Below, one piece after another: positions 1 to 64,000 of a DNA stretch of 64,000 nucleotides; the first letter of the stretch is position 1, and every line of letters begins with the position of its first letter. Made by a program: the position numbers and the translations under genes. A model generated the notes under the pieces. It saw only the letters and a program-made list of their open reading frames with translations, was not told the origin of the DNA and made no database searches. This stretch comes from Glandiceps talaboti (lineage: Eukaryota > Hemichordata > Enteropneusta > Spengelidae): assembly GCF_964340395.1 (NCBI RefSeq), contig NC_135555.1, positions 10,165,931 through 10,229,930 on the forward strand. Reading direction: 5' to 3'.

Positions 1-3000
1 ATACGAAATATAATGAGGTGTGTTAGTACCAAGTTTCATTGTCTACTAGTACCAATACCATAGCTCCCTTTGTGGTAACGACTTGATGATATTCATTACA
101 CCACTGCATCCTAATCTCCATTTTAACATATACATGTGAATTTTCATTCAAACCAGGTCACATTGGTCGCACTATGGTATTAGCAAAGTAACTGTGACAC
201 CAGATAGTTTATCGGAGATGGTGACTTACCAGCTTTCCATATGCTGTGATATTACAAACTTTGCAATACTTTGTAGCCTCTTCCATAGCCTTCTGGTGTG
301 CCCTTTCCTTTCTAATTTTCTCCTCTTGGAGCTTCATATTAGCCTCTTTGATAGCCTTTCTTTCTGCCAACATCACTCTTTCCTTGACATCACGTCGTGG
401 TTCTGGTTTGATGTCAAGCAGACTAGGTAATTCTTCCTGTGATACCTGACTTGTCTTTCCAGAGGATGCTTGATGCTATACAATAAAACAAATTATTAGA
501 TGTTATCCCCAATTTTTTTCTTCGTTCAGCCAAGGAAAAGACTTGTGACCTAAGGGGTCTTTGTCACTACGAGTCTAGTGACACCAGTGGCTGAATGAAG
601 AAAAATATTGGAGAATAACATAATTATGCCAGCACCAGTAATATCACAGAAAAATTGGGGAAAGTAATGGTAATTTTGAATGTTTTGACTCCAATTTCCA
701 ACACACAAGAACCAATGACGTAGACACACATTGTCGTGACATGGACGTGCATTGTCGTAACTTAGAACTAGAGTATATATTCCATATTTTTAGTTCTAAA
801 TAGCTTGGTATAATAGTTGTAAAATATATATATTATATCTTGTATCAACTTACAAATGTAGATACCCACATTCCTGGAAATAAAGGCATTTCTTGTAAAT
901 TTAGAGTTCTGTAGGATCATTCCAAAATTTTCCCTTAAGTTATATTTACCTAAATTGAATATGAATGCCAAGACAAACCAAGTTGAAACTTTGTTCATTG
1001 CAAGTCCTTGCCATGGGAACACACTGTGTCATGGGAGTTAGCAGACATGCATCCATACGCAATAGCAGAACATAAATAGTCATGATTGCTTAAATTTAAG
1101 GTAATGAGCACCTACGAAACCACTATAGCATAAACATAGCCATTATGTCTTTGAATCAAGAAGTTATCCACCTTTCTTGTATTGGGTAGGATTATCATCT
1201 GATCCTCAGATGCAAATGTCCATATTGTATCAGTACAATATTCCACTTACTCAATTTGCAACTTTTTTTTTAAAGAAGAACCACGTGAGAACACCCAATA
1301 TTAGTTATGCAGTACATGTACATGCATATTCATTGAATCGTTTGATTTAATAAGGTTGGTAGGAAAAAGGGTGTGAGTGGCAGTTTCACATACATTGCAA
1401 GTTATGCAACCATAATTTTCTTTGGAACCCTGGTAAGTGACCAGAGAATTCTCAGAGATTTTACCTACTAACTGCCCTTAGTAAAATCCTGGGTGAAAGT
1501 AGTCAACAAAATATATACATATAATACATGTACATATGCAAAAAAAAACGTAGGAGCAAATGAGCATTAAAATCATGAAAAGGTACCGTAGTAAATAGAG
1601 AATACCCAGGGGTGAACAAATCATTTTGTGAACAGGTGGTCGCCGGACCAGTACCTTAAAAAATCCAGTGGTCCTGCTGAAAGAAAGTGGTCCCAGGTCC
1701 CGCTAATGTGAAACATTAAATCTTACCTATGAATCTGTATATTCAGACAACTTTTTAACACAGTTATTAACAGTAAGGTACTGGTCCGACGGACCAGACA
1801 AGGTAAAATTTGTGTGGTCCGCCCCAAAAAAAATCGCTAGACCCGGACCCAAGACCAGTGGATTTGTTCACCCCTGATACCCCTTGTAGTTCGTAGACTC
1901 TGGGTTCATAACTACACATACTCATAGTGTCAAAAGATTCTTGGACACGAATCCCAAATGTTTGCGGACATATCAATACTGACAACACAGCAAAAATTTC
2001 GGCACTTGCTTCCAAAGAATTGTTTTACTTTGTTTTCATTTGTAACTTGTATCACTAGATGTTGGGAAGACATTTTAAAATAAAGCTCAACTATCCCACT
2101 ATACTGGCTCTCATTGCAGGTCAATCATTTAGATAATTCAAACGGCAGACTTGTACATCATTTCATATTTTTGATAACAAGAATACTATGGCATATTAGA
2201 GTTTGGGGTAGTAACAAGGTGGTATTACCCTATTGGTAGCTGTCTATGTGAAAATGTTTCAGTTTTCACAAAAGCACGCATCCAATATGGGTAATTTTCA
2301 CATATGAAATGATATGAATGGTATGAGGTATGAATAAGTCTGAAATGCTTTGAAAAGTAGTCCACAAAACTAGGTCGTCATACTTTAGAAAACTTTCCTG
2401 ACAAAAATAAGAAGGGACTAACATGTGCATACACGGGTCTGTCCAATTTATGATTCTGATTATTATATGATTTCTATGTTAGAAGTCTACTGGCAGTATA
2501 TGTACGGTTCCTGGACTTAAAATCTGTTAACTTTATAACCAAAATTAGAAGAAGTAAAAATGTGACTGTACCCGATCTTGTCGTCGTCTCTTAGAATCAC
2601 TGACTGAACTCTTTCCTTCAGGCTGTGCTGACCTTTTAGTCCCAACTCGGGACTGTTGTCGATTGCTTCCACCTTCATACATCTGTTGTACAGCAGATTG
2701 ACTAAAGACTCCAGGCACCATCATCTGCATTTGAGATTGCACATTTGATGGCATATTGACTCCAGGGACAAGATCAGCCATACCTAATTGGCTTGCTTGG
2801 ATGAGATGAGTAGGAGGTTCCCCTAATAATCCTGGACCAGGGTTGAAAGTTGTGTCATGACTAGATGACACTTTCAGAGGGATCACTTGTTGCCTCTGCT
2901 CTTGCCATTGGTGGGCACTGATCCCTACACTAGGCTGTAAGTATTGCGTACCTTCTTGTATATGTCCATAGTAGTGTGGTAATTGCTGGCCACTGCTGGT

Positions 3001-8539: not shown

Positions 8540-30293
<21,754 letters not shown>

Positions 30294-34301: not shown

Positions 34302-34487
34302 TGATATAATGTTATACATTGGTCTCTGAATGCATAATGTTCATCCTGGTAGAACTCTTCACAAAGCAGGCAGTAAAATCCTGAATTCATATATGAAGTT
34401 ATACATTGGCCTCTGAATGCATAATGTACATCCTGGTAGAACTCTTCACAAAGCAAGCAGTAAAATCCTGAATTCATATACGGTGTA
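34302..34487 (-). pseudogene. Gene C degenerate, tandemly duplicated last finger
   Basis: Two 87-bp copies encode M-N-S-G-F-Y-C-L-L-C-E-E-F-Y-Q-D..., clearly the matrin-type finger of B and D. In both copies the first His is Gln (R-x-Q-C), and in the first the second His is Met. TGA follows the second copy. No intact upstream exon provides a matching frame. Confidence 0.75.
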
Positions 34488-34605
34488 ATTCATATACGGT
34501 GTTTCTGAAAGAAGAGCAAATATAAAAGATAGTGAAGCTTCCTTAAAAATCCAAGCCAAGCATCGTGCAATCTTTCTACAATAAGTCTATAGAAATTAAT
34601 AACAA

Positions 34606-35631: not shown

Positions 35632-35715
35632 AGCATTTATATCTTTGGTATCTTCTTCCACAAGTCTTTTTATACTGGTATGATGCTTCTTCCCTTGGAG
35701 ATGCTCTTCATATTT
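35632..35715 (-). CDS. Gene C exon 8, His half of finger 3
   Basis: 28 codons, aaccag|AAATAT to GCT|gtaagt (K-Y-E-E-H-L-Q-G-K-K-H). Confidence 0.8.
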
Positions 35716-36258: not shown

Positions 36259-36312
36259 CTTAACATCAATGTCAATATCACATAAAAGGCACCAAATTGT
36301 TTTCATTGGTGG
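36259..36312 (-). CDS. Gene C exon 7, Cys half of finger 3
   Basis: 18 codons, ttgctag|CCACCA to AAG|gtaagt (I-W-C-L-L-C-D-I-D-I-D-V-K). Confidence 0.8.
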
Positions 36313-36674: not shown

Positions 36675-36776
36675 TTCATTGTCAAAGCCTCCAGGAGAAT
36701 TTTTATACGCCAAGAAATCTATCAATTGTTTTCTTCTCTTCAAATGAGCCATTGCCACTAGGTGGGCTTTAATACC
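36675..36776 (-). CDS. Gene C exon 6, His half of finger 2
   Basis: 34 codons, atacag|GGTATT to GAA|gtaagt. G-I-K-A-H-L-V-A-M-A-H completes C-x2-C-x12-H-x5-H. A basic helix follows. Confidence 0.85.
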
Positions 36777-37456: not shown

Positions 37457-37555
37457 CTTCAAGGCAAGGAACTTTTGTTCACAGATAGCACAGAAGAGTT
37501 CATTGCCATCCTCCAGTTTAAAGGTTTCAGTTTTCAACTTTGCCTCAATAGTATC
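37457..37555 (-). CDS. Gene C exon 5, Cys half of finger 2
   Basis: 33 codons, cttgcag|GATACT to AAG|gtaaaa; ends F-C-A-I-C-E-Q-K-F-L-A-L-K. Confidence 0.85.
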
Positions 37556-37871: not shown

Positions 37872-37958
37872 TGGTATGTAATCCAAAACTTGAAATTTTG
37901 ATTTAACTTCTGCTACTACACATTTGTGTTTCTTGCCACGGATGTGTTGTTGATAACT
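37872..37958 (-). CDS. Gene C exon 4, His half of finger 1
   Basis: 29 codons, ttgccag|AGTTAT to CCA|gtaagt (S-Y-Q-Q-H-I-R-G-K-K-H); same length as in gene B. Confidence 0.85.
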
Positions 37959-38905: not shown

Positions 38906-39121
38906 CGTTATAGTTGAGGTTACAATATCACAAATTTTGCATCGTACCATATTTTTGCCTAGTCTAGTCATATTCAGATCTTCAGTGATAAACTGTTGGC
39001 ATTCAACAGTTTTTGGTTCATGGGTAGGTTGTTTTAGTTGATCATAATGTCTTGGCAATTCTTGCTGTCTATTTGCATCAGTGTTAGGTGATATGACTGG
39101 TGACACCTTCCAAGTGGGTGA
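38906..39121 (-). CDS. Gene C exon 3, Cys half of finger 1
   Basis: 72 codons, attgtag|TCACCC to ACG|gtgagt; ends R-C-K-I-C-D-I-V-T-S-T-I-T. Confidence 0.85.
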
Positions 39122-39844: not shown

Positions 39845-41130
39845 CCGATCTTGTCGAAGCCTCTTAAAATCCTGTTGAATGTTCTGTTCTCTGGACTCCA
39901 TTGATCGTTTAGAGATATGGCATACTTGTTGCTCCCAGCTTCCATAGGAGAAGCTTTGTGATTCAGGTTTTCCATATTTGGAAATACCATCTCCTAGAAA
40001 CTGGTCAGGAAACCTTGGACGATTTGACCTGACCAGAAAGTGACCTTCTCCATACAGTCTTTCATCTGTACTGTGCTTAGGAGATAACGCTTGATTGACT
40101 CGGTGTTGCCTGTGACCCTCCCACTGGTGAACTGGCACCGTTTTCGAATTAGTGTGACCTTCCTGATGGTGACCATCATGCCCACTACCTGGTGGCACCA
40201 TTCTAGAATGACTCCGATCTCCCCAATGGCGACTACCACTCCCACTAGCTGGTGGCACCATTCCAGAATAATTATGACCTTCCCAACGGTTACAATCACT
40301 CCCACTAGCCAGTGAAACCATTCCAGAATGACCTTCCCATTGGTGAGCATCATGCCCACTAGCTGATGGCACCATTTCAGAATAACTCTCATGAGGCCTG
40401 TCTCTAGTGAGAGTGTGACCAGTGAAAGGTGAAGCAGTTTGTGACATTTCCTGAACAGACTTTTCACCTCTGATTCCTCCCCTATACCTCCCTTCATGGC
40501 TGGTATTGTGTTCAGAAAGGCTAGTATTGCACTTTGCCACAGTTTCAGGACCAAAGTTTCCCGCTGTCAGATGCATCTCAGTCATATCTTTCATTTGTTT
40601 TGCAGACTGTAACTGTGTGCCATCAGCACCAAACTGTCCTCCTCTGTCTTGTGAACCATGGCCATAATCAAACACCTCTTGGTCCTGTACAGCTTCCAAA
40701 CGAGACAGTTGAGCATGAATCTCTCTCAATTGAGAAGTACTTGCCAGATCAACACCCCCACGAGCAAATGCCTGCTCAATAACAGATTTCTGTTGCTTGA
40801 TGGCACTATTAACAGGCTGGTGTTGAGTTTTATCTGGCTGTGAGAACATACTTGCTCTGGACATTTGAGGTGAAGGTGGTGACAGTGATGTTTGCTGTGC
40901 CTTACGCTGTTTCTGGTGTATTTTCACTTGGTCATTGAATTGCTCCTGCAACGTTATCATCAACTGGTGCAACTGTTTTTTTATCACTGTCTGCTCACTT
41001 TGACAATTCTCATCCATCAATTGTAACACCTGTTCACCAAGCTTCTGGGCTATTTGTTCTGGAATACCATTCTCAGCATTGTCTGTGGTATGTGAACTCA
41101 GGGTCGGATCTTGCTGTCTAGAGGCATTAC
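39845..41130 (-). CDS. Gene C exon 2, Q-rich scaffold exon
   Basis: 428 codons, ttgcag|GTAATG to CGG|gtacag. It has L-G-E-Q-V-L-Q-L, E-V-F-D-Y-G-H-G-S-Q-D-R-G-G and the K-Q-M helix. It also carries about five copies of a W-E-G-H-x-x-S-x-M-V-P-x-A-S-G-like unit (40110-40400) that B lacks. The end is K-R-L-R-Q-D-R. Confidence 0.85.
40110..40400 (-). repeat. Coding minisatellite in gene C exon 2
   Basis: Imperfect units of about 45-60 bp encode S-G-M-V-P-x-A-S-G-x-x-x-x-x-W-E-G-H; five are recognisable. Found in C only. Confidence 0.75.
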
Positions 41131-47495: not shown

Positions 47496-47720
47496 TCAAT
47501 ACTGTTGTGGTCTGCCACCGCCACGCATGTGTCTTTGAAATGGACGTGTTGCCCCTCTTCCAAAACCTCCACCTCCCCTTTGGTTACCTCCCATGGGCAT
47601 ACCTCCTCTTTGGAAAGCCCCTCTCTGCATACGTTCTATGAATTCCATCCGTTCTTGCCGTAGCTTTCTCCTCCCACGTTTTGGCGCTCTTTCAAATTCT
47701 TTCACCCTATTTTCATATAC
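47496..47720 (-). CDS. Gene D last exon: basic and Gly-rich tail
   Basis: 74 codons plus TGA, tttcag|GTATAT. K-R-G-R-R-K-L-R-Q-E-R is followed by R-G-G-M-P-M-G-G-N-Q-R-G-G-G-G. It lacks the long minisatellite of gene B. Confidence 0.85.
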   Translation of the reverse strand, partial: VYENRVKEFERAPKRGRRKLRQERMEFIERMQRGAFQRGGMPMGGNQRGGGGFGRGATRPFQRHMRGGGRPQQY

Positions 47721-50700
47721 CTGAAAAATAATGGGAAAGAAATACGAGTTGTTTCATGAGATTACAGCTAAATTATGAAAAGGAGTTCCATTCAAGTTTT
47801 ATATATATATATATATATATATATAATACTTGTATTTCTGCATATTTGTCGCTGACAGATTGAAAACTTACTATCTGCTTCACCCAACAAGTGCACATGA
47901 TGAAGTACGCCCTCTAGTGGTGGTAATGATGCTGCCACACATGATATTCGGTCAAACGTAATGTAATACTCAAAACACAGGTTTTTTATCATCAAAACTG
48001 AAACAATTCTTTATTAAGAACTGTATATTAGCAGTTACACTTCTCTCCATCTCATCATCATTGTTTCAACTGAGCTCTCAATTTCATTTAGTGTACACCT
48101 TTTCAGTTAACAGGACATTTTTTACACAATAAAAGCGTCCTCACTCTTTAACCGTGAATGAAACTGTTCACACTATTGTTAACCATTTCTATGACACTGT
48201 CTCCACCACGTCACCTGTAACAATGCCACAACCCATAAACACACATGCTGCCACTCCCAAGTCTGCACCTGTTATTCAGTAAAATGTTTGTAAAAAATCG
48301 TCTATACCTTGACTGGGTCTCAAACACTTTACCTCTAGCGCTCTACCTTGACAAATCACGTTAAGTAAATATAGTAATGTTGTTAAGATTTTCATTAACC
48401 CAGTCAAGAAAATGTTATTATTTAGTAAGTCATATTATTTTCGGCAAGATAGACAACATTCTGTTTCATGTTTACTGGTTTCAATTGTAAATGGTACGTA
48501 CCTCTAACTTTGCAAAATGGTATTTACATCTACAGTGCTCATCAAATGCAAACTCTGGATCTTTGAAAAATTCTTCACACACCAGGCAATAAAATCCTGG
48601 ACTTATATACGTCTGCCCTGTAATATCAACATATCACAAAAATTGTACAAAACTTGCATTCATCAAAAAGAGTGTTACTGAATATCTTGATAACAGACTG
48701 AAGAGCAAAATTAGTTTTCTGACCTGCATAAATATATAAAATATACGGTAAAAGACGATCTGGTATTGCAATGCATTGTGGTAAATCTTGATACCTCTTT
48801 ATACACCTCAACCTTCATACACACATTGCCATTGGTCAGCATGGCATCATGTGACACTGAATACACTATTTACTGCTGATGTCATTTGGGCTACTGCACA
48901 TCAGTTCTGCTCATAACGAAGTGTCTTCCCCCAACTTTGATCATTTAGTCAGCAACTGCTCCTTCAGTCAAGCGCACAAACCTGAATTGTTTATTCAGTG
49001 AAGATAACTGGTTAAATACACTCAAATAATATAACTATTCCTTGCATGCCTTTGGGTTGACACTATTTACCTAAATATAGTAAAGATGACAAACCCTACA
49101 GCAGGTAATAAATTGTGATATTGCCCTTTAGTGGTATGTGTTATTGCTTTAATAACTGTTAATGTAACAGTAGATGGAATATCATTCATACCTGTCACTA
49201 CACCTTCTGTGTAACCATCGGCAAATTGCTCACTGAATTTTTGAACTTCATCTCCAACTTCATCCACGAAAGATGTGTCTTCTTTATCTTCTCCACTGCC
49301 AGCATCATCATCATCCTGATCATTGTCACTTCCTTCTGCATCCCCATCCTTTTCTATATCTTTGTCCTTTTCTGTCTCTTTGTCCCCTTCCCCTTCTTCA
49401 ACTTCCATTGATTCAGTTTCTTCCTGTCCAACATCATCAGATGGCACTTCTGTACCCTCCTCCTGCCCAGACTCTGTGTTTACATTCTTACTGGCATCAT
49501 CGGATGCAGCTGTTGTGTCATCCGCCTGTTCTGGTTCAACTTTCATTTCCTCAGACTTTCCATACATCTTGGCCAAGGACTGCAAACTTGTGATTTTGAT
49601 AATGAGGCACCTTCTACGTACATTATGTACAACAGTTGTGACGTGATTGTCATATTCCTGACAAGGAAGCAAAAACAAATCAAAAACTATTTATTTTATT
49701 TTTTTTAAAAACCTGGACTATCATACCACATACTTGTATAAAGAAGCTATGCCTATGTCATCCATGTTCTATTTAATGATAACATAAATGTAACAATGTA
49801 ACCTTTAGGGTGGAATAAGGGTTTAGGCCTGTAACATTGACTTTTCTAAAATCTATAATTGGACAAATTCAAAATGAACATTATAGTTTACTGTTTTAAA
49901 GACCAATATCAGATTGGGATAACATTTTGGATGTGAAAAAAATAGTCTGGCAGAGCTATAGAAAGTTGTTCTTATACAAAGAATGATTCTAATTTCTATG
50001 TTATCTGGCCTTATCCCCAAACATTAACATACAACATTTTGTATTGTCTGTTGATTTTTTTTTGAGTGATACATACTGTACTTGAGTCACATGGCACCTC
50101 ACATGAGTGACACTTCCACTCGTTTTCACTGCTGGCTTTAGTATTTGCCATTGCCTGGTGTTCCTGTATATGATGAAAAATAACAAGTAAGATTCTCTTT
50201 ATCATGTTACCATAATAATTGTGTTGCAATGTGAGCATGGTATGAGCATGACATGAGCATGATATAAGCATGGTATTAGCATGATAGATATACATGTACA
50301 AGGATCAATATGATTACAATCTGATCAATGAGAGGGCTCAATTTGCTTTATTTCTTATGCTTGTCCCTTGTGTTCTCTTTTGTTTAAATGTCAGGTGACC
50401 ACCTTCAACCAATGTATCAATCAATCAATCAATCAATAAATCAAATTAATTTTATAAAGTGTCACTTTCCTCTACAATGTAGAGTTCAGTGGCAATGTAC
50501 TGGAAAACAGATTGGCCTTTTAATTCACTCTGAAGGCTTGTTTTATCATCAAAATATAAAAACATAATGCAGCTTTACAATGAGATTCTATCTATAAATA
50601 ATATCTTTGCAATTTGCAGACCATACATTTCTACACCAAACATTTGAAGGAGACTGAACCCCCACCTCCCTCTCATCATTGGGTCTTCAACTAAGACTCT

Positions 50701-51165
50701 GTCACACTATGATTGTTGTGTATACAATTTGTAAACAAAAGACAATGCAAAGGACTAGCACAGTTATACTTCTAGATCATAATTATGACTTCCTTCACTT
50801 GGGTCAAAAGGCACCATGCAAACTTCGATCATCTACATGTACCAGTCTCTCTTTCTGGTAGTACAATAGCAGATGTCGATTACTAATGCTCTGAAATAAT
50901 GCAAGTGTCAAAACAAATAATTCACATTACCTCTAATAATGTCTTTATCATCTCTGTATCATCTTTTTCAACAGCTTCCTGGACTTTGATAATCAGCTCT
51001 GATGACTCTTTCATTATTTCATGTTTATATCCACTGAGATGAATTTTCAAATTCTGTATGAGTGGATACAAAATTTAGAATATGATCCTGAAACTAGTGA
51101 ACATCAACAAACAACATGATGGTGGTAGCAAACAATGTGTGTTCTTTTTCAAATGTAGTGATTTG

Positions 51166-51196: not shown

Positions 51197-54100
51197 GTAT
51201 GCATGTGGTTGTATCCACAAACCAACCACACTATCAGCAGCCTGGAACCCAGGAACACAAAAGAGTAATGAGACCCTCCAAAAAGTGCAACTCAAAGCAG
51301 CAAGATTTGTACTTGGGGATTACAAACCGAAATCAAGTATTACAGACATGCTACAAAAACTAGAATGGGACTCTTTAGAAGTTAGAAGAAAAACTCAATG
51401 GCTCACAGTCTTCCACAAAATCCTAAACAACAAATAGGCATCAACTCTGAAAATTATGTCAGGCCCAAAACCACGCGAAATAGAAGAACAAACAACTTGA
51501 AATGTGCCACTACACATCAACCCCCTTCATCCATTCTTTTTTTCCGGATGCCACAACATTATGGACCAGCTTTCCACAAAGTACTGTTGACATTCAATCT
51601 TGTGAGACATTCAAAATCCACATAAGAAACCAGCACCCCACAAGGTCCATCTAAACGCCCACCACTACTCTCGTCAGAACCTTCCAGTTATGGTCCCTGG
51701 TGGACCAATTTTGGAAGTGAAGACTACAAGGTAGGTGGTGGGTGGGTGGTTGGGTGGGTGGTTGGGTGGGTAGGTAGGTATGCATGTACTTGTCTGTGTT
51801 TGTTTGTGTGTGCTTGCATGTGTGTATGTGAATGTATGTATATGTGTATCATGTATGCATATATTACATTGCTATACTTACTGATTTTCCAAAGTTACAA
51901 TTACATGTTGCACAAGTATTGCCTCTTCCTGGTCTCTTCTTCAAGTTCTTTTTGACTTTATCCTGTTGAGAAGCACAAACATAAATAAATCACTGGAGCC
52001 AGCAAAGGCTATAACTACTGACAATTTTCCAGGCTTCATTTTCAGGTGCAGCACATACCGATAATACAAGACAAAAATATTCCCATTAACTTGAGCAATC
52101 CTAACTTGCCCTTGAAGAATTTGAAAGATCAAACTTTCCCTAAATGATCGACCAAAGATTGTTTACCAACTTATGTATTTGTTTCATAATACGATAGAAA
52201 ACAAGCTATCAGTAAACTAAGATAAACACAAACAAAAACTATTGCTATTGCATATAATGGACTACATAAGGGGGAGATTATAGTAGCCCCCCCCCCCCCC
52301 CCCCCCCATATTTTATATAGCACTTTTGCACTCTCTGTTCAATCCTCCCTACAAAGCACTTTAGATATGTGCCTGGGTAACAATTGTGAGCACCTACGTG
52401 CAGCATAAATACACACATTCTTATAAGCAGTGCCTTGGTTTATAGGCAGATATAATCACCCTGAAATCAAGATGGCACAAACACTGGAAGCTCCTAAAAA
52501 TGTTTACTGCAAGATTGAAGAGGTTGAATGTGCCACTACCTAGCGAAAACCTTGCCATCAGACATGCTGTCCTACTGATAGTGTAATTACATCAACAACC
52601 ACTGACAGCTTATAACAACTAGTTGCAACAATAGGTTCAGTTTGCGTCCAATGTAATCTAGCAAAAAGTTGATTTGCCATTGATGTATCACTTGATAAAT
52701 ACAACTTATATCATCCAAATATGTAGATCTACTTACAACCCTTTGTATAGCATCTTCTTTCTTCTGTGGATCACCTAAATCTTTGATAATTTCACCCAGT
52801 TCATTGACACCTTTCATGAATACCTCAGTACCCATTCTTTTGTCATCTTGCTTCAGCTTTTCATCTTTCTGTTTTGATGCAGCAAAATATATTCAAATCA
52901 GTCAGTGTTACTAATTTTTTACATAGCAATTCCTAAGAAATGGAATTGTTGATTTGAGTGCATTAAAGGAAAAGTCCAGTCAGACTTATTTCTACCTTTA
53001 GTATACTTGTATTGATTACTGCTATCAACTTACAGGAAAAGTCTAGTCAGACTTATTTCTACCTTTATTACACTTGTACTGATTACTACTATCAACTTAC
53101 AGGAAAATCCAGTCAGACTTATTTCTACCTTTATTACACTTGTATTAATGACTGCTATCAACTTAAAGGAAAAGTCTAGTCAGACTTATTTCTGCCTGTA
53201 GTACACTTGTATTGATTACTACTATCAACTTACAGGAAAATCCAGTCAGACTTATTTCTACCTTTATTACACTTGTATTAATGACTGCTATCAACTTAAA
53301 GGAAAAGTCCAGTCAGACTTATTTCTGCCTGTAGTACACTTGTATTGATTACTGCTATCAACTTACAGGAACATCCAGTCAGACTTATTTCTACCTTAAT
53401 TACACTTGTATTGTTTACTATTATCACCTACTTCATTTGACATGTGTTCAGGGACCGTTTTTGGGATATCTTGCAAGGGTTTATAGGAAACCTGTGATGA
53501 CATCATGGTTACCCTACTCTGTTGGTCTTGACAAATACAAATCGTAAGACCAAGAGAGTCTAGGGAATGCACAGTGATGACATATACTTACCGGCATCTC
53601 CTTCAGGTCTTGATATTTAGTTTTTAGTTCAGCCAATTCTAGTGCCTGTTTGTGTTTCTTTCCAGCCAAGTGATTCTTATAACTCTGTAAATAAAGGCAA
53701 TTTTTGGAACTTGACTTTTTTGGATGATATTTATTTTCTAATTGTACATGAATACATATTTTACTTTACAAAATGATTGAAATGATACAAACATAACATA
53801 TACATTAAAATAACATACACTTAAAATACATATACAGTGTAAGTTATGGGGGGGGGGAGGAGCCATACATTTATAGTAGATAGTATCACATACTCGGTTA
53901 ATCATTGTATTGGTATAGTATTAGTCAACTGTTGTGGGTACCGTCGGACATAAAACCAATACAGTACATACCAAGTAAATGGTGGGGGTAGGGATGTGGG
54001 TAGTGGGGAGGAGGGGTCACATTCATTTGTAGTTGTTAGCTGGCAGACAGGGTGTACCATACAATACATAGTATTTTAAACTTTGTATTTCAGCTGTACC

Positions 54101-54713
54101 TGTAAAAGAGAGACCTTTAGGCGATAGATTACAATTACTTACAATTTCACCTGGCGCTTTAACTCCACAGATTTCACAAGTAATCAAGGATTTCTCATAC
54201 TTCTCCAGTTTCTTTTTTGTTTTTTCTTCTGGTGCACTTTCCTCTGCTGTGGCTTCATCTGGTTTCTTTCCTTCCTACAAAACAAATACAAGAGTTGACC
54301 TAGCTCAGTACCTTCAAGAAATCTCGACTTCTCTTACCTGGAAAAATATCAGATATTCTTCACATCAAAAGAGCCTCAAAAGAACTCTAATCATCCTAAA
54401 TGTAATGACCTTCACAGCACACACACACGCACACACACACACATACTGACACACACACACACATACTGACACACACACACACACACACACACATACACTC
54501 ATACATTTACTGCAGACACACACACACACATACACGCACACACACACACATACACACACATACACACACATACATACACACACATACACATGCACATACA
54601 CACACATGTACACACACATGCACACACACATACACATACATACATACACACACATACACATGCACGTACACACATATGTACACACACATGCACACACACA
54701 TACACACGCACAC

Positions 54714-54767: not shown

Positions 54768-57700
54768 GACTCCGTTGTTAACAATAAACACATTATTAAA
54801 GTCACCAATGAAGCAATGAAGCATACCAATTTAGTAAATTGCAAAACCTACCAAAGTTTACATACATCATCTTATAATCAAAACATGACCACAATCCCCA
54901 TTTCACTTGGAAACTTTTTTTGTGTGTTTTAATGGGAGTATAATTGCTTAAATAATTTCTTTCTAATTGGTTACATTCCACAATCTCATCGCATAAGACA
55001 AAAAGACTCATGTTATATACGGTGTGAGGGACTCCATTTCTTTAGGAAAGAGTCTCAGAGTAGTTTTTGATTTTTTTTTAACTAGGAAAAGTTCACACTT
55101 GTACATTGGACACTTGGAGACTTTATATACAAGAAAATGTATACTTGCAAACATAAATACCAGAGCAATACACAGTGCTGCCTGTTTACCACACTAATGT
55201 GTACAATCTGTGATGGATATCACACAATTCTATTACTCGAGTCTTAGACTTACTTCATCTTTTCCACTTTCTTCTGTATCCATGGCAACATCTTTTGGCT
55301 TGGTTTCATCATCATCTAGCAGTAAGGCATCATCTGCTGCCGTAATTGTGAAATTTAAGTCAGACTCTTCTTCCATCTTTGTTTCCTTCTCATCATCTTT
55401 TGTTGTTGTCACCTCAGTAGTTTTGTCTGAACTGTCTTCTGTAGTTGCAGTATCTTGCAGTTCCTCTGGAATAGGTTTGCCTGCTGCATGCATCGCGGCT
55501 TCATACAAAGATTGCAAATTTTCTTCTATGACTACGAAACATCTCCATCTCATTTTGTGTGTCACTTTTGGTACATGGTCTTCATAAGCCTACATGAGAT
55601 AAGGGACAATCGCACAATGTTTGCACAAGCTCAATAAACTAACATCATTCGTCTAGAACCCCCCCCCCCCCCCCCCGAAGACTGTTAATTTGTTTTGACA
55701 ATTCTTTGAATATTTCAATAGATAAGAGTACAGACAATGCTATTTGTGAGATTGTTCCAGTCATTCACAGTGTCCAAAACACTATACTTTTTACCCTTTG
55801 AAATGAATACTATAAATCATAATAGAACATGGTGGAATTACTTTACTTATGTGTTACAGGTTGTAAATCACAAATGCAAAAGCGGAACATTGTGGAATCA
55901 CTTCACTTACATGTTAGAGGTTGTAAATTATAAATGAGAATTACTAATACTTACTACTTCAGTGTTGAATACTGAATCACATATAGGACAATGCCACTTA
56001 TCTTCATCGCTTGCCTTGTGTCTCATCATACCTTTGTATTTCTGTAAAATATTACATAAATAATGTTCAAAACATGTCAGTTTATTCTGAGACTTTTTCT
56101 GGGAAAACCAGACCATTCAGGTTTCCAATACCAATTTTCCTATACAAACTCTTTTGAAGGACTACAGAATTACTAGTAATTGTGGTGATACAACGGGTAA
56201 TACTGATGTAAAGCACTTTCTCTGAGCGCTACACTCGTTTATAGCATTCATATGATCAAGTGTAAAAGTATACTGTTTGAATTGGTTTATTTACAAGCCT
56301 AGCATGTGGCCTTTCTAATGTGGTCAATTAGCAAATGAAAGAGTATACTTTTACACTTGATATGGTTGCTATAAACGATTTGGGGTACATACAGAAAACG
56401 CTTTACTTTGGTGTTATGGGTTGTTCCTACTCTTGGAAAATAGGAAGAATAGCTCTTCTGCAAGGGTCAGGGTAACCAAGACTAGATTATATGTAGTTGG
56501 TGCAAGTTCTTGAAGCCGTTTGACGACTTCGTTGTGCTTTCCGGTCATTACCGCTGCCCCATCAGTTCCTATCCCAACAAGTCCGTCAAGGTCTACTTGT
56601 TTTTCCCGTAAGAATGATGTCACATGGGTGGTGAGTGTCTCTGCATTTAGTGAAATTGTCGGTGACTCGTCCAGGGTTTCATCATATTTCAAAGGTTCAA
56701 TCAACTTCAGAAACTTGACACACAGCTGCCCATATTGGTCAAGAAAACAACAGTTCAAAGTCAATTGTTCGTTGACGCTTACATCAGAAGTCTCATCGAG
56801 CATGATCGCAAAAAACTCAGATTGTTTCAGCTGTTCGATGGTTTCATCTTCAAGTAAGGCTGACAGAATACTCAACATCTCTTGAATGGATTTGTCACTG
56901 CAGTATGTGACACTCTTTGAAATATTGAGGTCATCTTTGACAGACAAGCCGAGTTCAGTCAATAAATCAAGTAACGGTTCAAAGTTTGTTGTATGTGGTA
57001 TGCGACGTTTCGCTAGATGGTACAGGCATTTGAAAGCAGAGACTATGGCGTCATGTTTCACGCCAGTTTGAATGGTTTCGCCGATGTCTTGTGTTGTGGC
57101 GCTCAACAGTTCTAGTTTGATGGCATCACGGTGGGCGGCGGTTTGCTCATGCTCTTTGACGCTGACCAAATGAAGACGTCTGCATGGTGTCTTGTTCCAC
57201 ACATCTCTGTCATAGGGACACTTATCGTACTTCTGACATAGTCTACAATACATGCTCTCATTAGAAATGAAGTACAACCATGTCTTGCAACCATTCGCCC
57301 ATTCTTCTTTGTAGGTAGTTGCTTGTCTCTTCCTCTTCGTGGCTGGAGAATAAGCATCGGTGTGTCTTGACTTCTTCGAAATGGTGGCGGGATTTTCGTT
57401 TTCGTCACCAGGCACCTTGCGTTTCGTTGTAGAAAAATAACGGTCTAACGACATGACTGAATACTTTGAATGCTACTTGAAAATATATTACTGGAGGAAG
57501 CTATAGGAACGTGTGTCACTTGTGTTGTCGATCACAAAATGGATTCAAACAGTTGAATTTTGGTCGCTTTTAAACTTTTTTCTTGCATATGATTCATTTT
57601 GCTTTTAGGAAAAGAAAGAAATCAGTAACGTATGATCAATCATTCATTCATTAGAAACAATACTCATATGTAACATTTTACGTTTGTTGGTAATACTGGG

Positions 57701-60700
57701 GGTACTCCTGGTTTTGATTTTTACCGTCCCATTGAAGATCTCCATACGGACGTTTAACACCTCAGAGCGTGTAATTTACACGTGGTGTCGGCATCATGTT
57801 AAGTTAACTCTGTGTTTTGTTTACGTATCTGAAAGCACGTTGACACCTCGTTGTAGTAGTATTTACTGTCCCTTGTTTCCCTATTATGTATGGTCTAAAA
57901 ACATACCACCTGCACTAGTTTCCAATAAATATTTTAATTCCTTATCATTTTAAACAATTGTTTGTGTGTATGTTATAACAATTGACTTTGAAAGCAGGTG
58001 GTCCATGCCACCTTTGTGACAGTAGGAGTCGTGGTCGGCAACCTTTGAGTTGTGGTTGCTAAATCTGACTGCCGGACGCTTGCGACCGATGGAGACCACC
58101 GTCAGCAGAACCCTGGTTAGTAATATCTATTCTGGGGTGATTGGAAGGATAGCCTTCCTGTAAGGGTCAGGGTAACCAAGACTAGAATATCTATAGCTAC
58201 ATGTATCTTGGGTGCTTAAAAGACAGCTGTCCTGCAAGGGTCTGTCGCTAAGAGGATGGTGCAACTTGAATCATCAAAGTGTTTAAATTGGCAAAACACT
58301 GCAGACATACAGTAGTTGTTTGTACTTATACATGCAGCACCAAAAGACGAAAAATTACACCCCAAAGAGTTCCTTACAAAAAGTTTACAGTGAACTTTGC
58401 TATTACGGGTAGAAATCAACAAGTGATAGTTCAAGAGTGGAAACTATTAAAATACATGTAAATATTCCATTTCACCTTTAGTAATTCCTCTAACTTATCA
58501 ATTTCCTCCTCTTTGACGGCATCCCGGGCTTTGACAATCACGTCAGCCATCTCCTTCATTCTGCCATGCTTATATCCAGCAACATGTTTATCATGATTCT
58601 GTAGGAGGAAATTATGATATAATCTGTGAACTTATGGAATGTCTTCACCAGTGAGGATGAACTTTATGGTGCAAAATGTATAACTGCTATAATTTTAGAC
58701 TTTATCAACATTAAGAAAATCATATGCTGAAACAGCAGGCATTAAAAAGTATCCCTTAGTACAGAACAATGCAGTCCCACTCATGTCTGATTTAAATCTA
58801 CAAGTACTTCTAAACAGCACCCTCATTGGCCAAACTATAAAATCTTTCGTTTTTTTCTGATACCTGGCATAAGGCATATTAATACAATGCACTGATAGGA
58901 ACACATTACAAAATGAAATGTATAACTCATCTTAAAAACTTACTGATTTGCCAACATCACAGATACATATGAAGCAATAATTTTTCTCAATTGAAAACTT
59001 CCCAATATTTTTTTCAACCTCATCCTGGAAAGATATACAAATATGAGAAAAAGAGAAAGTTCAGTTATTATTGTGCAATGGCGAGACTAAATATAAACAA
59101 CCTATGGTCCCAGAAAACATGCATAAGATACAGTGATTGTTGTTATTTTGAGTAACAATTTACACCTGGCAATTCTATGATACAACAACACACATTCACA
59201 TCATTGGTTCTTTGGTACTCACAATATGAATAAAAACATTCCAAATCACCATTACTTTCCCTTATTTTTCATAAATTATGCTTATATTATTTCCCCATAC
59301 TTTTCTTCATTCAGCCAGAAAATACCCATGACCTAACAATTTTATCACTTCCTGTCTTTTGCCTCATAGTGACAAGGCCCCCTAGCTCACTCATATTATA
59401 ACATTGGCAGAACGAAGAATAATATTAACGTGAAGTATTCTGGGGAGAAGACTGTGTGTATGGTCTCTACTAATAAGTCACACAAATCTATAACAACTCA
59501 CAGCTCTCTTTATAGCATCTTCTTTCTTCTCTGGGTCACCGAGATCATGGATGATCTCTCCTCTTTTCTTGTAAGTTTTCATGTATTCGTCCGTATTTCT
59601 TCTCCTGTCTTCATGTCTCTGCTTTACTTCTTCCTGTTACAAAGATGATAAATATATCAATTCTGTGTCACAGCCAACAACAACTTGCAAGTCTTGTTGA
59701 CTTGTTGAAACAAGAGTGCTTGCTGTATTAGCACATGACATTTGACCTTGACTATAAAGGTCATAGTGGGCATGACCTCTCTTTCTTCAATACAAATGTA
59801 CGTCTACAGTTCAGAATAGTATACAACGCTTTCCTGCAGTCATATGAAATCTATGTAATAGACCTGTTGTCGGTTCCAAGATGCATTGTGCATCTCTCCA
59901 TACAATGCCATGTATTGTGTACGCACTGAGGGGTTTGCACGCGCTACTCAGGGGATGGTTGTCACCTGACAGTACCCTGGGTTCACCTGTAAAATCACTG
60001 TCTGTCATTGATGGCATTAAGTCCTTGCTCCATAAAACTCATAATCTAAGACGTCAACATGTCTTTCCATCACTTCCAGATGAAAATGTTATTTTAAATG
60101 TAATAAGAACAAAACAAGACTAAATGTAACAACATAAGCGACATCCTCTCGCGCAATGCATCTTGGAACCGGAAAATCGATTATTGAATCATATATGTAT
60201 GCAGTAAGAGCTGAAGAAGACCAAGCGATTTAGCTTAAATAAACTAACTTACTAGTACGTCAATTATTTCAGTTTTGACTAAGAACTACTTCAAAATACA
60301 ACTACAATGTTTTATATAAAATTATATTGTGTTGACATTTTGTTTCAGACAGAAATGGCTGTCAGTTGTCTGTAAATAAGATCACAACCCAAGCTATATA
60401 AGAGAGATCATCATTGTGCAAAGTGAAATACCAGTGAATTTCACTGACATGTAGAAAAGAAATAGAAGAGGCTGATACCTACAGGAACACACACAATCTA
60501 ATGTTTCTAATTCTTGCATATGATATCATATTTGCCCCAAAAATTCCAAACTTTTTTCGATGGTGGCTAAATACATGTGGGCTTCATCAATGTACATGTA
60601 TAGTACATTATCATGCCAGACTTTCCTTATACCCCAATACAGTTTGTTATCACAAGGTTTTCATCAACCAAATTTTACAGCAGTCTTTTTTTATTGGTTA

Positions 60701-63700
60701 TCAATTGGTCAAAATTACCTGATGTGATTTCTACTGATACGTTTCCAACCAAAGATATACAATGTACAGTACCACAACATGATACAAATAATGATTCACC
60801 CCCCCCCCCCCACACCCATAATTTTACTTGTAGTTTTAAAACCTCAGCTAGAAACACTATACACAGGACACTGCTTCAGTCAATGTTCACAACAATCACT
60901 AGGTATATGTAAATATTTCTCAAGTACTTACTGGCATGTCCCCGTATTCTGGATACTTGACTTTCGCTATTACCATTTCCACGGCTTGCTTGTGTTTTTT
61001 TCCAGAGACATGCATGTTATAGCTCTGCAAGAACAAATATAATTCATCACCATAAAGTCGCTGCCTGCAACACTGACAGAATACAAGGGTTTAACATCAC
61101 ACATATTTAGAGAGGCAATACTGGAGTTAATACCTTTTTTTGGGGTAATTTTTACTGTACTATATTTTAAAAGGTAATTGTGCATGAGGTGGTGTACGAA
61201 CTAAGAAGCCTTGCTTTTGGCAGAGCTAAAACCTGGTATTCGGACATACCACATAAACTTTTCGAGAACAATCCCAGGTCATCACATTCTTAATAAGGAT
61301 TCTTTTGTTCTGAACCAGCTTTTTCTATAGCGCTACCAAACAACCTTATATTAATACTAATCCAAAGTAGATCTCTGTATTAAAGTATAAAAACACTAGA
61401 ATAATCAGGAAACCCCTCCATAAGCCATAAACTGCACCAACAATGCCAGATGACAATTCTAACACCATCAAAGCATGCCTCGATCTAACAGTACAGGATT
61501 TTATGGAAGTATTTTACCCAAGTAAAAAAATTATTAACTCGGCTTGTGGCACACCCTCTCTAATCCCCCCCCCCAAAAAAAAAAAAAACATCTTATTTTA
61601 GAAGAGTGACCAATACTCCATACACATGCCAGTATAAGACAAGTCAAGATATCATTTACTGCATATTATGTTTTGTCTAAGATTTGTTTGTTCATTTTTT
61701 CCAATTAATTCAAACAGTAAATCCACTGTATACAAAATAAAAAAAAGAGATGTAGAGTCTCCTTAAAACTCAATTCTACAGTTTTATGAGCGTTCTGATG
61801 CAATAAACACTCAATATCAATATTAATTAATTGTATACAATAATACACGCACACTGTGCTCAATCAGTGGCAATTGCATACACAAGTAGAAAATCCAACC
61901 AAACAAAAAGAGGCTAAAAAGTTGTCAAAAAAATCAATGAATACTCATTATACTACAAGGGTCTCACCCTCTTCAGGCCAAGTCCTTGTACATGATAATG
62001 GCGGTTGCAGGATTAGGATTTTAATGTAGTGGAAAACATCACTTACTATTTCACCTACAGCCTTTACACCACATATCTCACAATATTTAATGGTATCCTC
62101 TTTATGTTGGAACTTTTTCTGTAGTGCTTCTCTCTCCCTCATCGCCTGTTGATGTTCAAACATTTCCCGCTCACGGTTTCTCATCTGTAGGTGTCTTTGT
62201 CGGATATCTCTTGGTGGGGGTGGGGGTAGTAGTGGTGGGGGTGGGGATAGTAGTGATGGGGGTGATGGTAGTAGTGGTGGTGGTCTTGGTGGCCTGTCAA
62301 ATGGCCTAGGTCCTCTAGGTGGCTAAACAAACCAAACATTGACTGTTAATTCTCTACTTACTTCAAGTAATGGTACATGTACAAATGTATAAACAGAGTG
62401 CAAAATTAGTAGTAGTGTAGGACCCATAGAGAACTAAACGTATCTAGACCACCAAATTAGTAGTAGTCCAAGACACATAGCGTGATAAACACCATATCTA
62501 GACCACCAAATTAGCAGTAGTCCAAGACACATACAGTGATAAACACCATATCTAGACCACCAAATTCATAAGGTGGTGGTCTGTTAGACCAGTGGAAAAC
62601 AATATATGTACTGAAACAGTTCACTGGACTAGATCTGATTACCAATACAGTACAAGTTAAATTGAGCCCTGGCAAACCATATATATGTAATTGAATAGTG
62701 ATGCAGCTGTTAAACATGCTATGCATGCTATACTGTATACATGTACAACTTGATATTAAAAGATGAAAACAAACACAAAATGTACCTCCATCCAATCTGG
62801 GCGTCGTCTCTTAGGTTCACTCTCATAAAACTGTGGTCCTGGAGGCACTGGTCTTTTAGAAATAAGGCGACGTACCAATTGTAGTATACTTCTTAATTCA
62901 AAACCTTCAGATTCTTCATAATCCAGTGCATCATCTCTCAAAAACTGGCCTGAAAAATTACCTCCCCTATCCATTCGTTGACCAGGTCTTCCTCTGGTGG
63001 GCAACATTTTTGGAGGATCTTCCTGCCATTGACGACCACCACGTCCACTACTCTTTTCTTGTTGTTGTCTCTGACCTTGCCACTGCCGTCCACTCCTCCC
63101 AGAGCCACTCTGCTGATGGCGTCCTTGATCTTCCCATTGATCACCATCATCAAAATCACCACCTTGGCTTTTTCTGCGACCTTGCCATTGCAGACCTCCC
63201 CTACCAGGGCTTTTCTGACGTCCATACTGTTGCCATTCAGACTCACCACTTCCATATGTTCCACTTTGCTGCCTACCACGACCTCTACCGGCCCCTCCTC
63301 TTTCTCCACGCTGCCTTTGGTCTGACGATTGAGGATAACTCCATTCTGAAGGAGTCTCTAGTAGATATCTACGACTGCCCCTCCCAGAGCTACCCCCTCC
63401 TTGTTGTCTTTGCTCTTGCCGTTGACGTCCGCCCCTTCCGGTGCTTCCTCCTCCGTGCTGCTTTTTTTCTTGCCATTTGTGGTATCCACCTTTCCCTAGC
63501 ATTGACTGAGACCGCCAGTCACTAGAGCCACCCCTGTCAAAAGTATGGCTCTGTTCCTCTTCACCATCATCCTCCCCAAAATCGACTTGATTTTCAAGAA
63601 GTGAAATCTGTTCACATAGACTGGTGTAAGCATCTTTGTATTGCTCTGCAGATCCAGTATCAAAGCTGGCTGCTAACATCTGTCTCTCCATCGTAGCCTT

Positions 63701-64000
63701 CATCTGTCTCGCAGAGAGCAGCTCTGCGCTTTCACCGTCAGCTGCATAACCTGTAGCACAATAATAAGGCAACCACATGTTAATATTGACAGAACTGTAT
63801 GTGTTACTTTGGGTCTGCAGTGTGCATGTACAGATGCAGAACATGTATTTACACAATAAAAGTACAATTACCGCTACTGGTACACATGTGAATTAGATAA
63901 ACCATATTTAAGACTGACTGCTGTCTCTTTTATTTACATGAAACATTATTCAGTGTGTTGTTTTATCTCACTATCAGTAGTAGTATCACATGACCCAGTG
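47496..64000 (-). CDS. Gene D: CIZ1/matrin-like zinc-finger protein with an internal module duplication (5' end outside)
   Basis: Seventeen exons on the minus strand run from 63750 to the stop at 47496 and encode about 1,181 residues; exon 1 and the first scaffold part lie beyond the right edge. After an RGG/Q-rich exon come two consecutive sets of [finger a, D-L-G-D-P linker, finger d, finger e plus acidic tail], then the matrin-type finger and a Gly-rich tail, seven fingers in all. Fingers 2 and 3 of B and C have no counterpart. All internal introns are phase 0 except those at the start of the scaffold exon and before the last finger (phase 1). A nuclear RNA- or DNA-binding role is inferred from the finger type. 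Confidence 0.85.
48502..48617 (-). CDS. Gene D exon: matrin-type finger
   Basis: attacag|GGCAGA to GAG|gtacgt, same 116-nt length and phases as in B. Y-I-S-P-G-F-Y-C-L-V-C-E-E-F-F ... E-H-C-R-C-K-Y-H. Confidence 0.9.
49192..49657 (-). CDS. Gene D exon: His half of finger e2 plus second acidic region and D-E-V-G
   Basis: 155 codons plus one base, tgtcag|GAATAT to ACAG|gtatga. E-Y-D-N-H-V-T-T-V-V-H completes the finger; M-E-V-E-E and D-D-D-D-A runs follow; then S-F-V-D-E-V-G-D and F-A-D-G-Y-T-E-G-V-V-T-G, matching F-A-E-G-Y-V-A-G-K-S-T-G in B. Confidence 0.85.
50077..50163 (-). CDS. Gene D exon: Cys half of finger e2
   Basis: 29 codons, atacag|GAACAC to ACA|gtatgt; W-K-C-H-S-C-E-V-P-C-D-S-S-T. 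Confidence 0.85.
50931..51053 (-). CDS. Gene D exon: His half of finger d2
   Basis: 41 codons, atacag|AATTTG to GAG|gtaatg; N-L-K-I-H-L-S-G-Y-K-H. Confidence 0.85.
51220..51780 (+). mobile_element. LINE 3' end, opposite strand to gene D
   Basis: One frame reads L-Q-K-V-Q-L-K-A-A-R-F-V-L-G-D-Y, T-D-M-L-Q-K-L-E-W and F-H-K-I-L-N-N, the usual end of CR1/Jockey-like ORF2. A short 3' tail and a (GGTTGGGT)n/(GTAG)n-like microsatellite follow. 5'-truncated, as typical of LINE insertions. Confidence 0.75.
51882..51962 (-). CDS. Gene D exon: Cys half of finger d2
   Basis: 27 codons, caacag|GATAAA to TCA|gtaagt; T-C-A-T-C-N-C-N-F-G-K-S. Confidence 0.85.
52737..52868 (-). CDS. Gene D exon: D-L-G-D-P linker 2
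   Basis: 44 codons, aaacag|AAAGAT to GTT|gtaagt; E-I-I-K-D-L-G-D-P-Q-K-K-E-D-A-I-Q-R-V. Confidence 0.85.
52967..53430. repeat. Tandem array, about 67-bp unit, seven copies
   Basis: Units begin AGGAAAAGTCCAGTCAGACTT or AGGAAAATCCAGTCAGACTT variants and contain ACACTTGTATTGATTACT and ATCAACTTA. Start spacing is 65-69 bp. It lies in a gene D intron. Confidence 0.9.
53592..53684 (-). CDS. Gene D exon: His half of finger a2
   Basis: 31 codons, tttacag|AGTTAT to CCG|gtaagt; S-Y-K-N-H-L-A-G-K-K-H-K-Q-A ... M-P. Confidence 0.85.
54143..54274 (-). CDS. Gene D exon: Cys half of finger a2
   Basis: 44 codons, ttgtag|GAAGGA to ATT|gtaagt; C-E-I-C-G-V-K-A-P-G-E-I, nearly the same as a1 (one change). Confidence 0.85.
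54420..54765. repeat. Long (CA)n/(CATA)n microsatellite
   Basis: About 345 bp of CA and CATA repeats in a gene D intron; all ORFs across it are repeat translations. Confidence 0.95.
55254..55589 (-). CDS. Gene D exon: His half of finger e1 plus first acidic region
   Basis: 112 codons, atgtag|GCTTAT to GAA|gtaagt. A-Y-E-D-H-V-P-K-V-T-H completes the finger; then N-L-Q-S-L-Y-E-A-A and an acidic stretch without the D-E-V-G motif. The exon ends in phase 0, not phase 1 as in the terminal copy. Confidence 0.85.
55955..56041 (-). CDS. Gene D exon: Cys half of finger e1
   Basis: 29 codons, ttacag|AAATAC to GTA|gtaagt; W-H-C-P-I-C-D-S-V-F-N-T-E-V. Confidence 0.85.
56414..58115 (-). mobile_element. 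hAT transposon remnant, 5' end intact, 3' end missing
   Basis: Lies in a gene D intron, same strand. The 5' terminus is CAGGGTTCTGCTGACGG at 58115, a hAT-type end. An ORF from 57454 reads 346 codons: a TTF-like C2H2 region (C-R-L-C...H-R-D-A), then hAT-like core segments (F-F-A-I-M-L-D-E-T-S-D-V and G-I-G-T-D-G-A-A-V-M-T-G). It leaves the family sequence after about residue 320, near 56495, and runs on into flanking repeat DNA. The C-terminal dimerisation region is missing, so no active transposase is expected. Confidence 0.8.
58476..58598 (-). CDS. Gene D exon: His half of finger d1
   Basis: 41 codons, ctacag|AATCAT to AAG|gtgaaa; N-H-D-K-H-V-A-G-Y-K-H then V-K-A-R-D-A-V-K-E-E-E-I-D. Same length as in B and in d2. 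Confidence 0.85.
58944..59024 (-). CDS. Gene D exon: Cys half of finger d1
   Basis: 27 codons, ttccag|GATGAG to TCA|gtaagt; Y-C-F-I-C-I-C-D-V-G-K-S, with an extra Cys after the pair as in d2. Confidence 0.85.
59225..59430. mobile_element. Family-1 MITE, third copy
   Basis: TTCTTCATTCAGCCA near 59302 and a matching right end near 59405-59430; flanking CCATTACTTTCCC is the reverse of the sequence beside the copy at 501-620. In a gene D intron. Confidence 0.6.
59502..59633 (-). CDS. Gene D exon: D-L-G-D-P linker 1
   Basis: 44 codons, taacag|GAAGAA to GCT|gtgagt; E-I-I-H-D-L-G-D-P-E-K-K-E-D-A-I-K-R-A. Confidence 0.85.
60932..61024 (-). CDS. Gene D exon: His half of finger a1
   Basis: 31 codons, cttgcag|AGCTAT to CCA|gtaagt (S-Y-N-M-H-V-S-G-K-K-H ... 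M-P). Confidence 0.85.
62047..62322 (-). CDS. Gene D exon: Pro-rich linker and Cys half of finger a1
   Basis: 92 codons, gtttag|CCACCT to ATA|gtaagt. A Pro/Leu/Ser-rich run (P-P-P-L-L-P-S-P-P) is followed by a charged helix (N-R-E-R-E-M-F-E-H-Q-Q) and C-E-I-C-G-V-K-A-V-G-E-I. Confidence 0.85.
62786..63750 (-). CDS. Gene D scaffold exon (second or later exon)
   Basis: 321 codons, gctacag|GTTATG to GAG|gtacat. It begins with the K-Q-M-type helix (S-A-R-Q-M-K-A-T-M-E-R-Q-M) and Y-K-D-A-Y-T-S-L, then a long G/R/Q/S stretch (R-G-G-R-Q-R-Q-E-Q-R), and ends K-R-R-R-P-D-W-M-E. The upstream D-Y-G-H-G-S-Q part must be on an exon outside the window or lost. Confidence 0.85.

What the first reader, a model, noticed from the sequence alone, without database searches (positions are those of the whole stretch)
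1..64000. Cluster of four CIZ1/matrin-like genes whose fingers are split exactly between Cys and His pairs
Every internal U1-type finger in A-D (14 examined across both exons, plus the Cys half in A) is divided by a phase-0 intron 7-8 residues after the second Cys. Cys-half and His-half exons alternate, and homologous exons keep the same length between genes (54, 87, 102, 123 nt). The exons are thus interchangeable parts: skipping one pair, or joining a Cys half to a distant His half, always keeps frame and can make a hybrid finger. I know of no described locus built this way. Alternative use is inference; the exon structure is seen directly.
Basis: partly seen in the sequence, partly recalled or inferred. 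Interest (0 to 1): 0.9.

Follow-up and report, generated by a model that had tools for sequence, protein, structure and literature searches.

The report
Zinc-finger genes with split-finger exons
A run of four related animal genes has each internal zinc finger cut in two by an intron at the same place; the cut is real but looks inherited from an old ancestral gene, and the two halves have stayed together as pairs instead of being mixed.

Summary
The window lies in an unnamed 590-Mb genome and carries genes A (cut by the left edge), B, C and D. In the window, 14 of 14 internal fingers with both halves present, plus A's Cys half, are split by a phase-0 intron 7 or 8 residues after the second Cys. 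The fetched flank completes gene A: 19 of 19 internal fingers in the four genes are split. The terminal matrin-type finger is not split.

Cys and His halves agree in class in 23 of 25 fingers by mean score and 24 of 25 by nearest neighbour. A tblastn search found no convincing spare halves. Junctions into the terminal finger do not all keep frame. Best reading: an old intron, then duplication of two-exon fingers and of whole genes, with ordinary linear splicing. No cDNA was available, so splicing is untested.

The parts
2572..4190 (-). Gene A, long N-terminal exon ending KRRRQDR|GTACAG
230..475 (-). Gene A, alpha Cys-half exon (the rest of A lies left of the window: in all 5 split fingers and an unsplit terminal finger)
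10823..11862 (+). Gene B, long N-terminal exon
12838..13074 (+). Gene B finger 1 (alpha) Cys half
16670..16756 (+). Gene B finger 1 His half
17434..17535 (+). Gene B finger 2 (beta) Cys half
18108..18209 (+). Gene B finger 2 His half
21161..21214 (+). Gene B finger 3 (gamma) Cys half
22235..22321 (+). Gene B finger 3 His half
25007..25108 (+). Gene B finger 4 (delta, diverged) Cys half
25977..26099 (+). Gene B finger 4 His half
26594..26680 (+). Gene B finger 5 (epsilon) Cys half
27709..28765 (+). Gene B finger 5 His half plus long acidic region; leaves in phase 1
29365..29480 (+). Gene B terminal matrin-type finger, one exon, enters in phase 1
29841..30290 (+). Gene B last exon, RGG repeats (codons; the stop follows)
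39845..41130 (-). Gene C, long N-terminal exon
38906..39121 (-). Gene C finger 1 (alpha) Cys half
37872..37958 (-). Gene C finger 1 His half
37457..37555 (-). Gene C finger 2 (beta) Cys half
36675..36776 (-). Gene C finger 2 His half
36259..36312 (-). Gene C finger 3 (gamma) Cys half
35632..35715 (-). Gene C finger 3 His half (alpha-like in sequence; the only remaining candidate hybrid)
34298..34489 (-). Gene C terminal finger, degenerate, doubled in frame by an 87-bp tandem unit, His1 replaced by Gln in both copies; no in-phase splice into it was found
62786..63750 (-). Gene D, long N-terminal exon (start by the acceptor CTACAG|GTTATG)
62047..62322 (-). Gene D finger 1 (alpha) Cys half
60932..61024 (-). 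Gene D finger 1 His half
58944..59024 (-). Gene D finger 2 (delta) Cys half
58476..58598 (-). Gene D finger 2 His half
55955..56041 (-). Gene D finger 3 (epsilon) Cys half
55254..55589 (-). Gene D finger 3 His half plus acidic stretch; leaves in phase 0
54143..54274 (-). Gene D finger 4 (second alpha) Cys half
53592..53684 (-). Gene D finger 4 His half
51882..51962 (-). Gene D finger 5 (second delta) Cys half
50931..51053 (-). Gene D finger 5 His half
50077..50163 (-). Gene D finger 6 (second epsilon) Cys half
49192..49657 (-). Gene D finger 6 His half plus acidic region; leaves in phase 1
48502..48617 (-). Gene D terminal matrin-type finger, one exon, enters in phase 1
47499..47720 (-). Gene D last exon, RGG tail (codons; the stop follows)

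Best explanation
The cluster is a local expansion of a CIZ1/matrin-type nuclear protein gene. The ancestor probably had a Q-rich N-terminal part, a basic signal, five internal U1-type fingers (alpha, beta, gamma, delta, epsilon), an acidic region, an unsplit matrin-type finger and an RGG tail (seen in B and D). Shown: every internal finger is coded by two exons joined by a phase-0 intron at the same place, and copies outside the cluster share this. Inferred: an old intron sat in one ancestral finger; the two-exon finger was duplicated inside the gene, then whole genes were duplicated, with later loss (C: delta and epsilon; D: beta and gamma) or gain (D: a second alpha-delta-epsilon set) of whole fingers. 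Inferred: the exons are normally spliced in linear order to make a nuclear scaffold protein that binds RNA or DNA. The interchangeable look of the exons is a by-product of one repeated intron position. Skipping of whole fingers is possible; hybrid fingers are unlikely to be a used product.
For: Split in 19 of 19 internal fingers of A-D. Same split in 5 of 5 internal fingers of E and in the one complete internal finger found in F. Same site and phase in finger 1 of the ZFR-type gene: CDICKISCAGPQ|GTAAGT ... CAG|TYKEHLDGQKH, with DZF exons about 5 and 7.5 kb downstream on the same strand. Finger order alpha-beta-gamma-delta-epsilon in A, B and E. Halves of one finger agree in class in 23 of 25 (mean score) or 24 of 25 (nearest neighbour); shuffled pairings give 5.2 on average and at most 16 in 20,000. 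The joined frames stay open through B (1214 aa) and D (1093 aa). The order fingers, acidic domain, matrin-3 domain matches human CIZ1 (PMC11895699, passages).
Against: No cDNA, so linear splicing is not shown. The order of events is inferred. F gave only one complete split internal finger and one epsilon-type His half; alpha, gamma and delta were not found. The N-terminal exons of A and B have no significant Pfam match, and no CIZ1 sequence could be compared, so CIZ1 kinship rests on architecture. Class labels were set by position in A, B, C and E but by resemblance in D and F, so agreement there is partly built in. Two halves sit badly in their class: B4 Cys and C3 His.
Confidence: 0.82

Rival explanations
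1. The half-finger exons are a combinatorial set: alternative splicing joins non-adjacent Cys and His halves to make hybrid fingers with new specificities.
Against: Halves stay paired in class in 23-24 of 25 fingers; no convincing spare halves; the same geometry occurs in the ZFR-type gene next to an unsplit finger; junctions to the terminal exon lose frame. The inverted pair is a copy of a dispersed repeat with at least 163 matches in the genome, so it is not special to this locus.
Confidence: 0.04
2. Whole-finger skipping (a Cys+His pair left out) is used to make isoforms with different numbers of fingers, while each finger keeps its own halves. This is compatible with the best explanation.
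For: Phase-0 symmetry of pairs; whole fingers have been lost or doubled without breaking the frame in D; human CIZ1 is extensively alternatively spliced (PMC6226236, PMC2945943, passages).
Against: No transcript data; the human CIZ1 events in those passages are not frame-neutral finger skips (exon 9 is 122 nt; CIZ1-F shifts the frame).
Confidence: 0.3
3. Introns were inserted repeatedly and independently at the same site in each finger (an insertion hot spot or introner-like element).
For: Finger 1 of the ZFR-type gene has the intron at the same place while its finger 2 does not. Of 171 pairs of the 19 finger introns, 6 share a match at E 1e-3.
Against: 165 of 171 pairs share none. Of the six, B1/B2 and B3/B5 are dispersed repeats with at least 163 and 68 matches in the genome, and the A3/B4 match falls on the microsatellite in B4's intron; the other three are 34-79 bp and were not followed. 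The split is in every internal finger of A-E, as expected from descent.
Confidence: 0.08
4. B finger 4 is a genomic hybrid made by deleting an alpha His exon and a delta Cys exon.
Confidence: 0.03

Closest known systems
CIZ1 (human and mouse)
   Same: Q-rich N-terminal part, internal C2H2 fingers, acidic domain, then a matrin-3 type finger, in that order (PMC11895699 and PMC4783944, passages). From PMC2945943 (exon 9 = r.1702_1823, passage) the exon 9/10 junction would fall in codon 608, inside finger 1 (593-617), if the numbering starts at the start codon; so human CIZ1 too may have an intron inside a finger.
   Different: Three internal fingers, not five; that junction would be phase 2, not phase 0, and exon 9 is 122 nt, so not frame-neutral. 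RGG tails were not compared. Sequence orthology not tested.
ZFR (zinc finger RNA-binding protein)
   Same: Finger 1 of the ZFR-type gene in this genome is split at the same place and phase.
   Different: Finger 2 is unsplit; DZF domain present; a different family. Naming it ZFR rests on the DZF exons and on recall of the finger sequence.
zf-met / JAZ fingers elsewhere in this genome
   Same: Same finger type; the two alpha fingers scanned pass the zf-met cut-off.
   Different: 14 listed zf-met matches are unsplit (150 of 1428 candidates scored), but a six-frame search can only see unsplit ones, so this is no count of split ones.
d4 / DPF family
   Same: Isoforms in which a single C2H2 finger is lost or disrupted through exon skipping or inclusion (PMC11678306, passages).
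   Different: A single Kruppel-type finger, not a repeated array of split fingers.

Membership tests
U1-type / zf-met C2H2 fingers | CX2CX11-14HX5H spacing with all four ligands (range recalled) | tested here: met
   25 of 25 complete internal fingers examined in A-F, CX2CX11-12HX5H
U1-type / zf-met C2H2 fingers | Pfam zf-met (PF12874) match over the curated cut-off | tested here: inconclusive
   Of 6 correctly spliced internal fingers scanned (of 25), 3 pass (A1, D1, D3) and 3 do not (C2, C3, D5)
CIZ1 | Order: Q-rich N-terminus, fingers, acidic domain, matrin-type finger | tested here: met
   Genes A, B and D by reading the exons (Q-rich and acidic judged by eye); C lacks the acidic part and has a decayed last finger; the acidic part of E was not read out. 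Reference order from PMC11895699
CIZ1 | Sequence orthology to vertebrate CIZ1 | not testable with these tools
   No CIZ1 chain among the PDB matches; no annotated animal genomes held
CIZ1 | Three internal fingers (as in human and mouse) | tested here: not met
   Five in A, B and E, six in D; only C has three
Combinatorial exon array (Dscam-like, recalled) | Extra unpaired or mutually exclusive exon copies | tested here: not met
   3 of 119 tblastn matches outside known half exons, none convincing
Combinatorial exon array (Dscam-like, recalled) | Transcripts with alternative choices | not testable with these tools
   no cDNA held

The most novel reading that the evidence does not exclude
The half-finger exons form a combinatorial array in which splicing joins Cys and His halves of different fingers, making hybrid fingers with new RNA or DNA specificities; C finger 3 (gamma Cys half, alpha-like His half) would be a genomic trace of the same exchange, and the inverted repeat pair around B's His-1 and Cys-2 exons a way to bring it about.
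Probability: 0.04. Interest if true: 0.85.

Novelty: new variant of a known kind. Interest (0 to 1): 0.3.

Why it matters
It is a clean case of a finger array that seems to have grown by duplicating a two-exon finger, unlike the single-exon arrays of many finger genes (recalled), and it links the intron of a CIZ1-like family with that of a ZFR-type gene. A five-finger CIZ1-like family with a tandem expansion could help to trace the origin of CIZ1. If hybrid fingers were found in cDNA it would be a new way to diversify binding specificity, but the evidence here is against it.

Tried and rejected
Hybrid origin of B finger 4: looked good inside the window, weakened once gene A's delta finger was fetched.

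One gene or two for D: the D3 His exon leaves in phase 0 into D4, and the joined frame is open to the RGG tail, so one gene with a doubled three-finger set is preferred.

Introns as related elements: my first self-comparison was capped at 400 pairs and E 1e-15; one search compared the 19 finger introns directly and found 6 of 171 pairs with a match, of which two are dispersed repeats.

Selection: dN/dS for A-E halves 0.33/0.63 (Cys) and 0.37/0.74 (His), for B-C 0.49/0.87 and 0.72/0.74; 91-178 codons, so only a hint of fast change.

Superseded: the first Pfam and PDB scans used finger peptides that I joined wrongly at the splice point in places; one search replaces the Pfam scan, the PDB scan was not repeated. 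In one search the start of E's gamma Cys exon was set 6 nt too late, and the ends of E's first and last half exons were not fixed.

Literature: ten searches were answered; four of them returned no papers. The listings shown had no title describing a locus with every finger split. The library lacks most subscription papers, so absence in print is not shown. Papers seen as passages only: PMC2945943, PMC6226236, PMC11895699, PMC4783944, PMC5144077, PMC11678306, PMC9887622. PMC8927971 was seen only in a listing.

Full report
What is there. The window is G000:C8:10165931-10229930 of a 590-Mb genome in 47 contigs. Reading frames and splice sites give four genes: A on the minus strand (4190 down past the left edge), B on the plus strand (10823-30290), C on the minus strand (41130-34298) and D on the minus strand (63750-47499). 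First coding exons upstream of the long N-terminal exons were not sought. The joined B frame is open for 1214 aa and D for 1093 aa.

The split. In the window 14 of 14 internal fingers with both halves, plus A's Cys half, are divided by a phase-0 intron. The Cys exon ends 8 residues after Cys2, or 7 in B3, C3, D2 and D5. The next exon has His1 as its fifth residue, then HX5H. Flanks fetched completed gene A: His half at -415, then beta, gamma, delta and epsilon pairs down to -23371, and an unsplit terminal finger at about -25918. So 19 of 19 internal fingers in the four genes are split. All 38 half exons have AG before them; 35 of 35 with located phase-0 ends are multiples of 3 followed by GT. 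A spliced A1 finger matches zf-met over 1-25 of 25 positions at 37.4 bits; three of the six internal fingers scanned in that call pass the cut-off.

Finger types. By order and sequence the fingers fall into five types. A, B and E carry alpha-beta-gamma-delta-epsilon; C carries alpha-beta-gamma; D carries alpha-delta-epsilon twice. Exon lengths follow type: His-delta is 123 nt in 4 of 4 copies in A, B and D and in E. This is what duplication of genes and of whole fingers would leave.

Not only in the cluster. A search with the B N-terminal exon found A, B, C and D, a further gene E on the same contig 5.8 Mb away, and a distant gene F on contig C1. E has five internal fingers, five of five split, and an unsplit terminal finger. 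F has one complete internal finger, split at the same place (CTICEQKLTTNK|GTGAGA ... CAG|AVDDHIRSMSH), an epsilon-type His half without a Cys half found, and an unsplit terminal finger; alpha, gamma and delta were not found. Of the zf-met loci cut out (eight loci of about 3 kb, from five places in the genome), one place shows a split finger: CDICKISCAGPQ|GTAAGT, next exon TYKEHLDGQKH, then an unsplit second finger. DZF exons lie at C13:4020635 and 4022826 on the same strand, so I call it the ZFR-type gene. The geometry is identical: phase 0, 8 residues after Cys2, His1 at residue 5.

Introns. Of 171 pairs of finger introns, 6 share a match at E 1e-3. B1/B2 is a 56-bp inverted pair around the His-1 and Cys-2 exons of B; it belongs to a dispersed repeat with at least 163 matches in the genome. 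B3/B5 is another dispersed repeat with at least 68 matches. A3/B4 falls on B4's microsatellite. The remaining three matches are 34-79 bp and were not followed. So there is no common intron sequence, but an inverted pair that could in principle help to skip His-1 and Cys-2 exists.

How it most likely works. The proteins resemble CIZ1 in order of parts: Q-rich N-terminal region, basic signal, fingers, acidic domain, matrin-type finger. Human CIZ1 has fingers at 593-617, 656-676 and 687-709, an acidic domain at 741-761 and a matrin-3 domain at 796-831 (PMC11895699, passages). B and D add an RGG tail. By analogy (inference) they are nuclear scaffold proteins that bind RNA or DNA through the internal fingers and associate through the terminal one. 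The split exons are most simply an old intron copied with the finger, then spliced in linear order. PMC2945943 gives human CIZ1 exon 9 as r.1702_1823 (passage), which would place the exon 9/10 junction in codon 608, inside finger 1; that would be phase 2, so it is not shown to be the same intron, and it depends on the numbering used there.

Limits. No cDNA, no annotated animal genomes, no CIZ1 sequence to compare. The six-frame genome searches score only the best candidates, so counts there are lower bounds. The ten literature searches showed no title describing such a locus in the listings I saw, in a library that lacks most subscription journals.

Verdict. A real, tidy and perhaps undescribed gene structure, but the striking regularity is explained by descent. 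Interest 0.3.

Noticed in passing
10823-11862 and 39845-41130: The N-terminal exons of B and C are 78% identical over 794 bp while their finger halves are only 61% (Cys) and 53% (His) identical at the DNA level: gene conversion of the N-terminal exon, or fast change of the fingers.
   Followed up: partly
28128-28570: The acidic part of B's last His exon is 76% identical over 443 bp to the matching exon of gene A left of the window, although the fingers of A and B are only about 50% identical.
   Followed up: no
13124-13179 and 17834-17889: Inverted pair of a dispersed repeat (at least 163 genome matches) in the two introns that flank B's His-1 and Cys-2 exons.
   Followed up: partly
21450-21747 and 26969-27245: Another dispersed repeat (at least 68 genome matches) in the introns of B fingers 3 and 5.
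   Followed up: partly
56414-57472 (minus): An ORF inside a D intron matches zf-C17orf113 over its cut-off and DUF4371 below it; it looks like a hAT-type transposase fragment (recalled).
   Followed up: partly
20043-20405 (plus): Reverse-transcriptase fragment (RVT_1, 28.6 bits, just under the cut-off of 29.6) in a B intron.
   Followed up: partly
34298-34489 (minus): Gene C's terminal finger is doubled in frame by an 87-bp tandem unit, with His1 replaced by Gln in both copies, and I found no acceptor that fits the phase of C's last His exon; the 3' end of C looks decayed.
   Followed up: partly
23007-23432 (plus): ORF with seven copies of a 27-bp repeat (KSPDESAET) between B fingers 3 and 4; a possible extra acidic exon with weak splice sites.
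   Followed up: partly
52963-53426: Tandem repeat of period 67, seven copies, in the intron after D finger 4.
   Followed up: no
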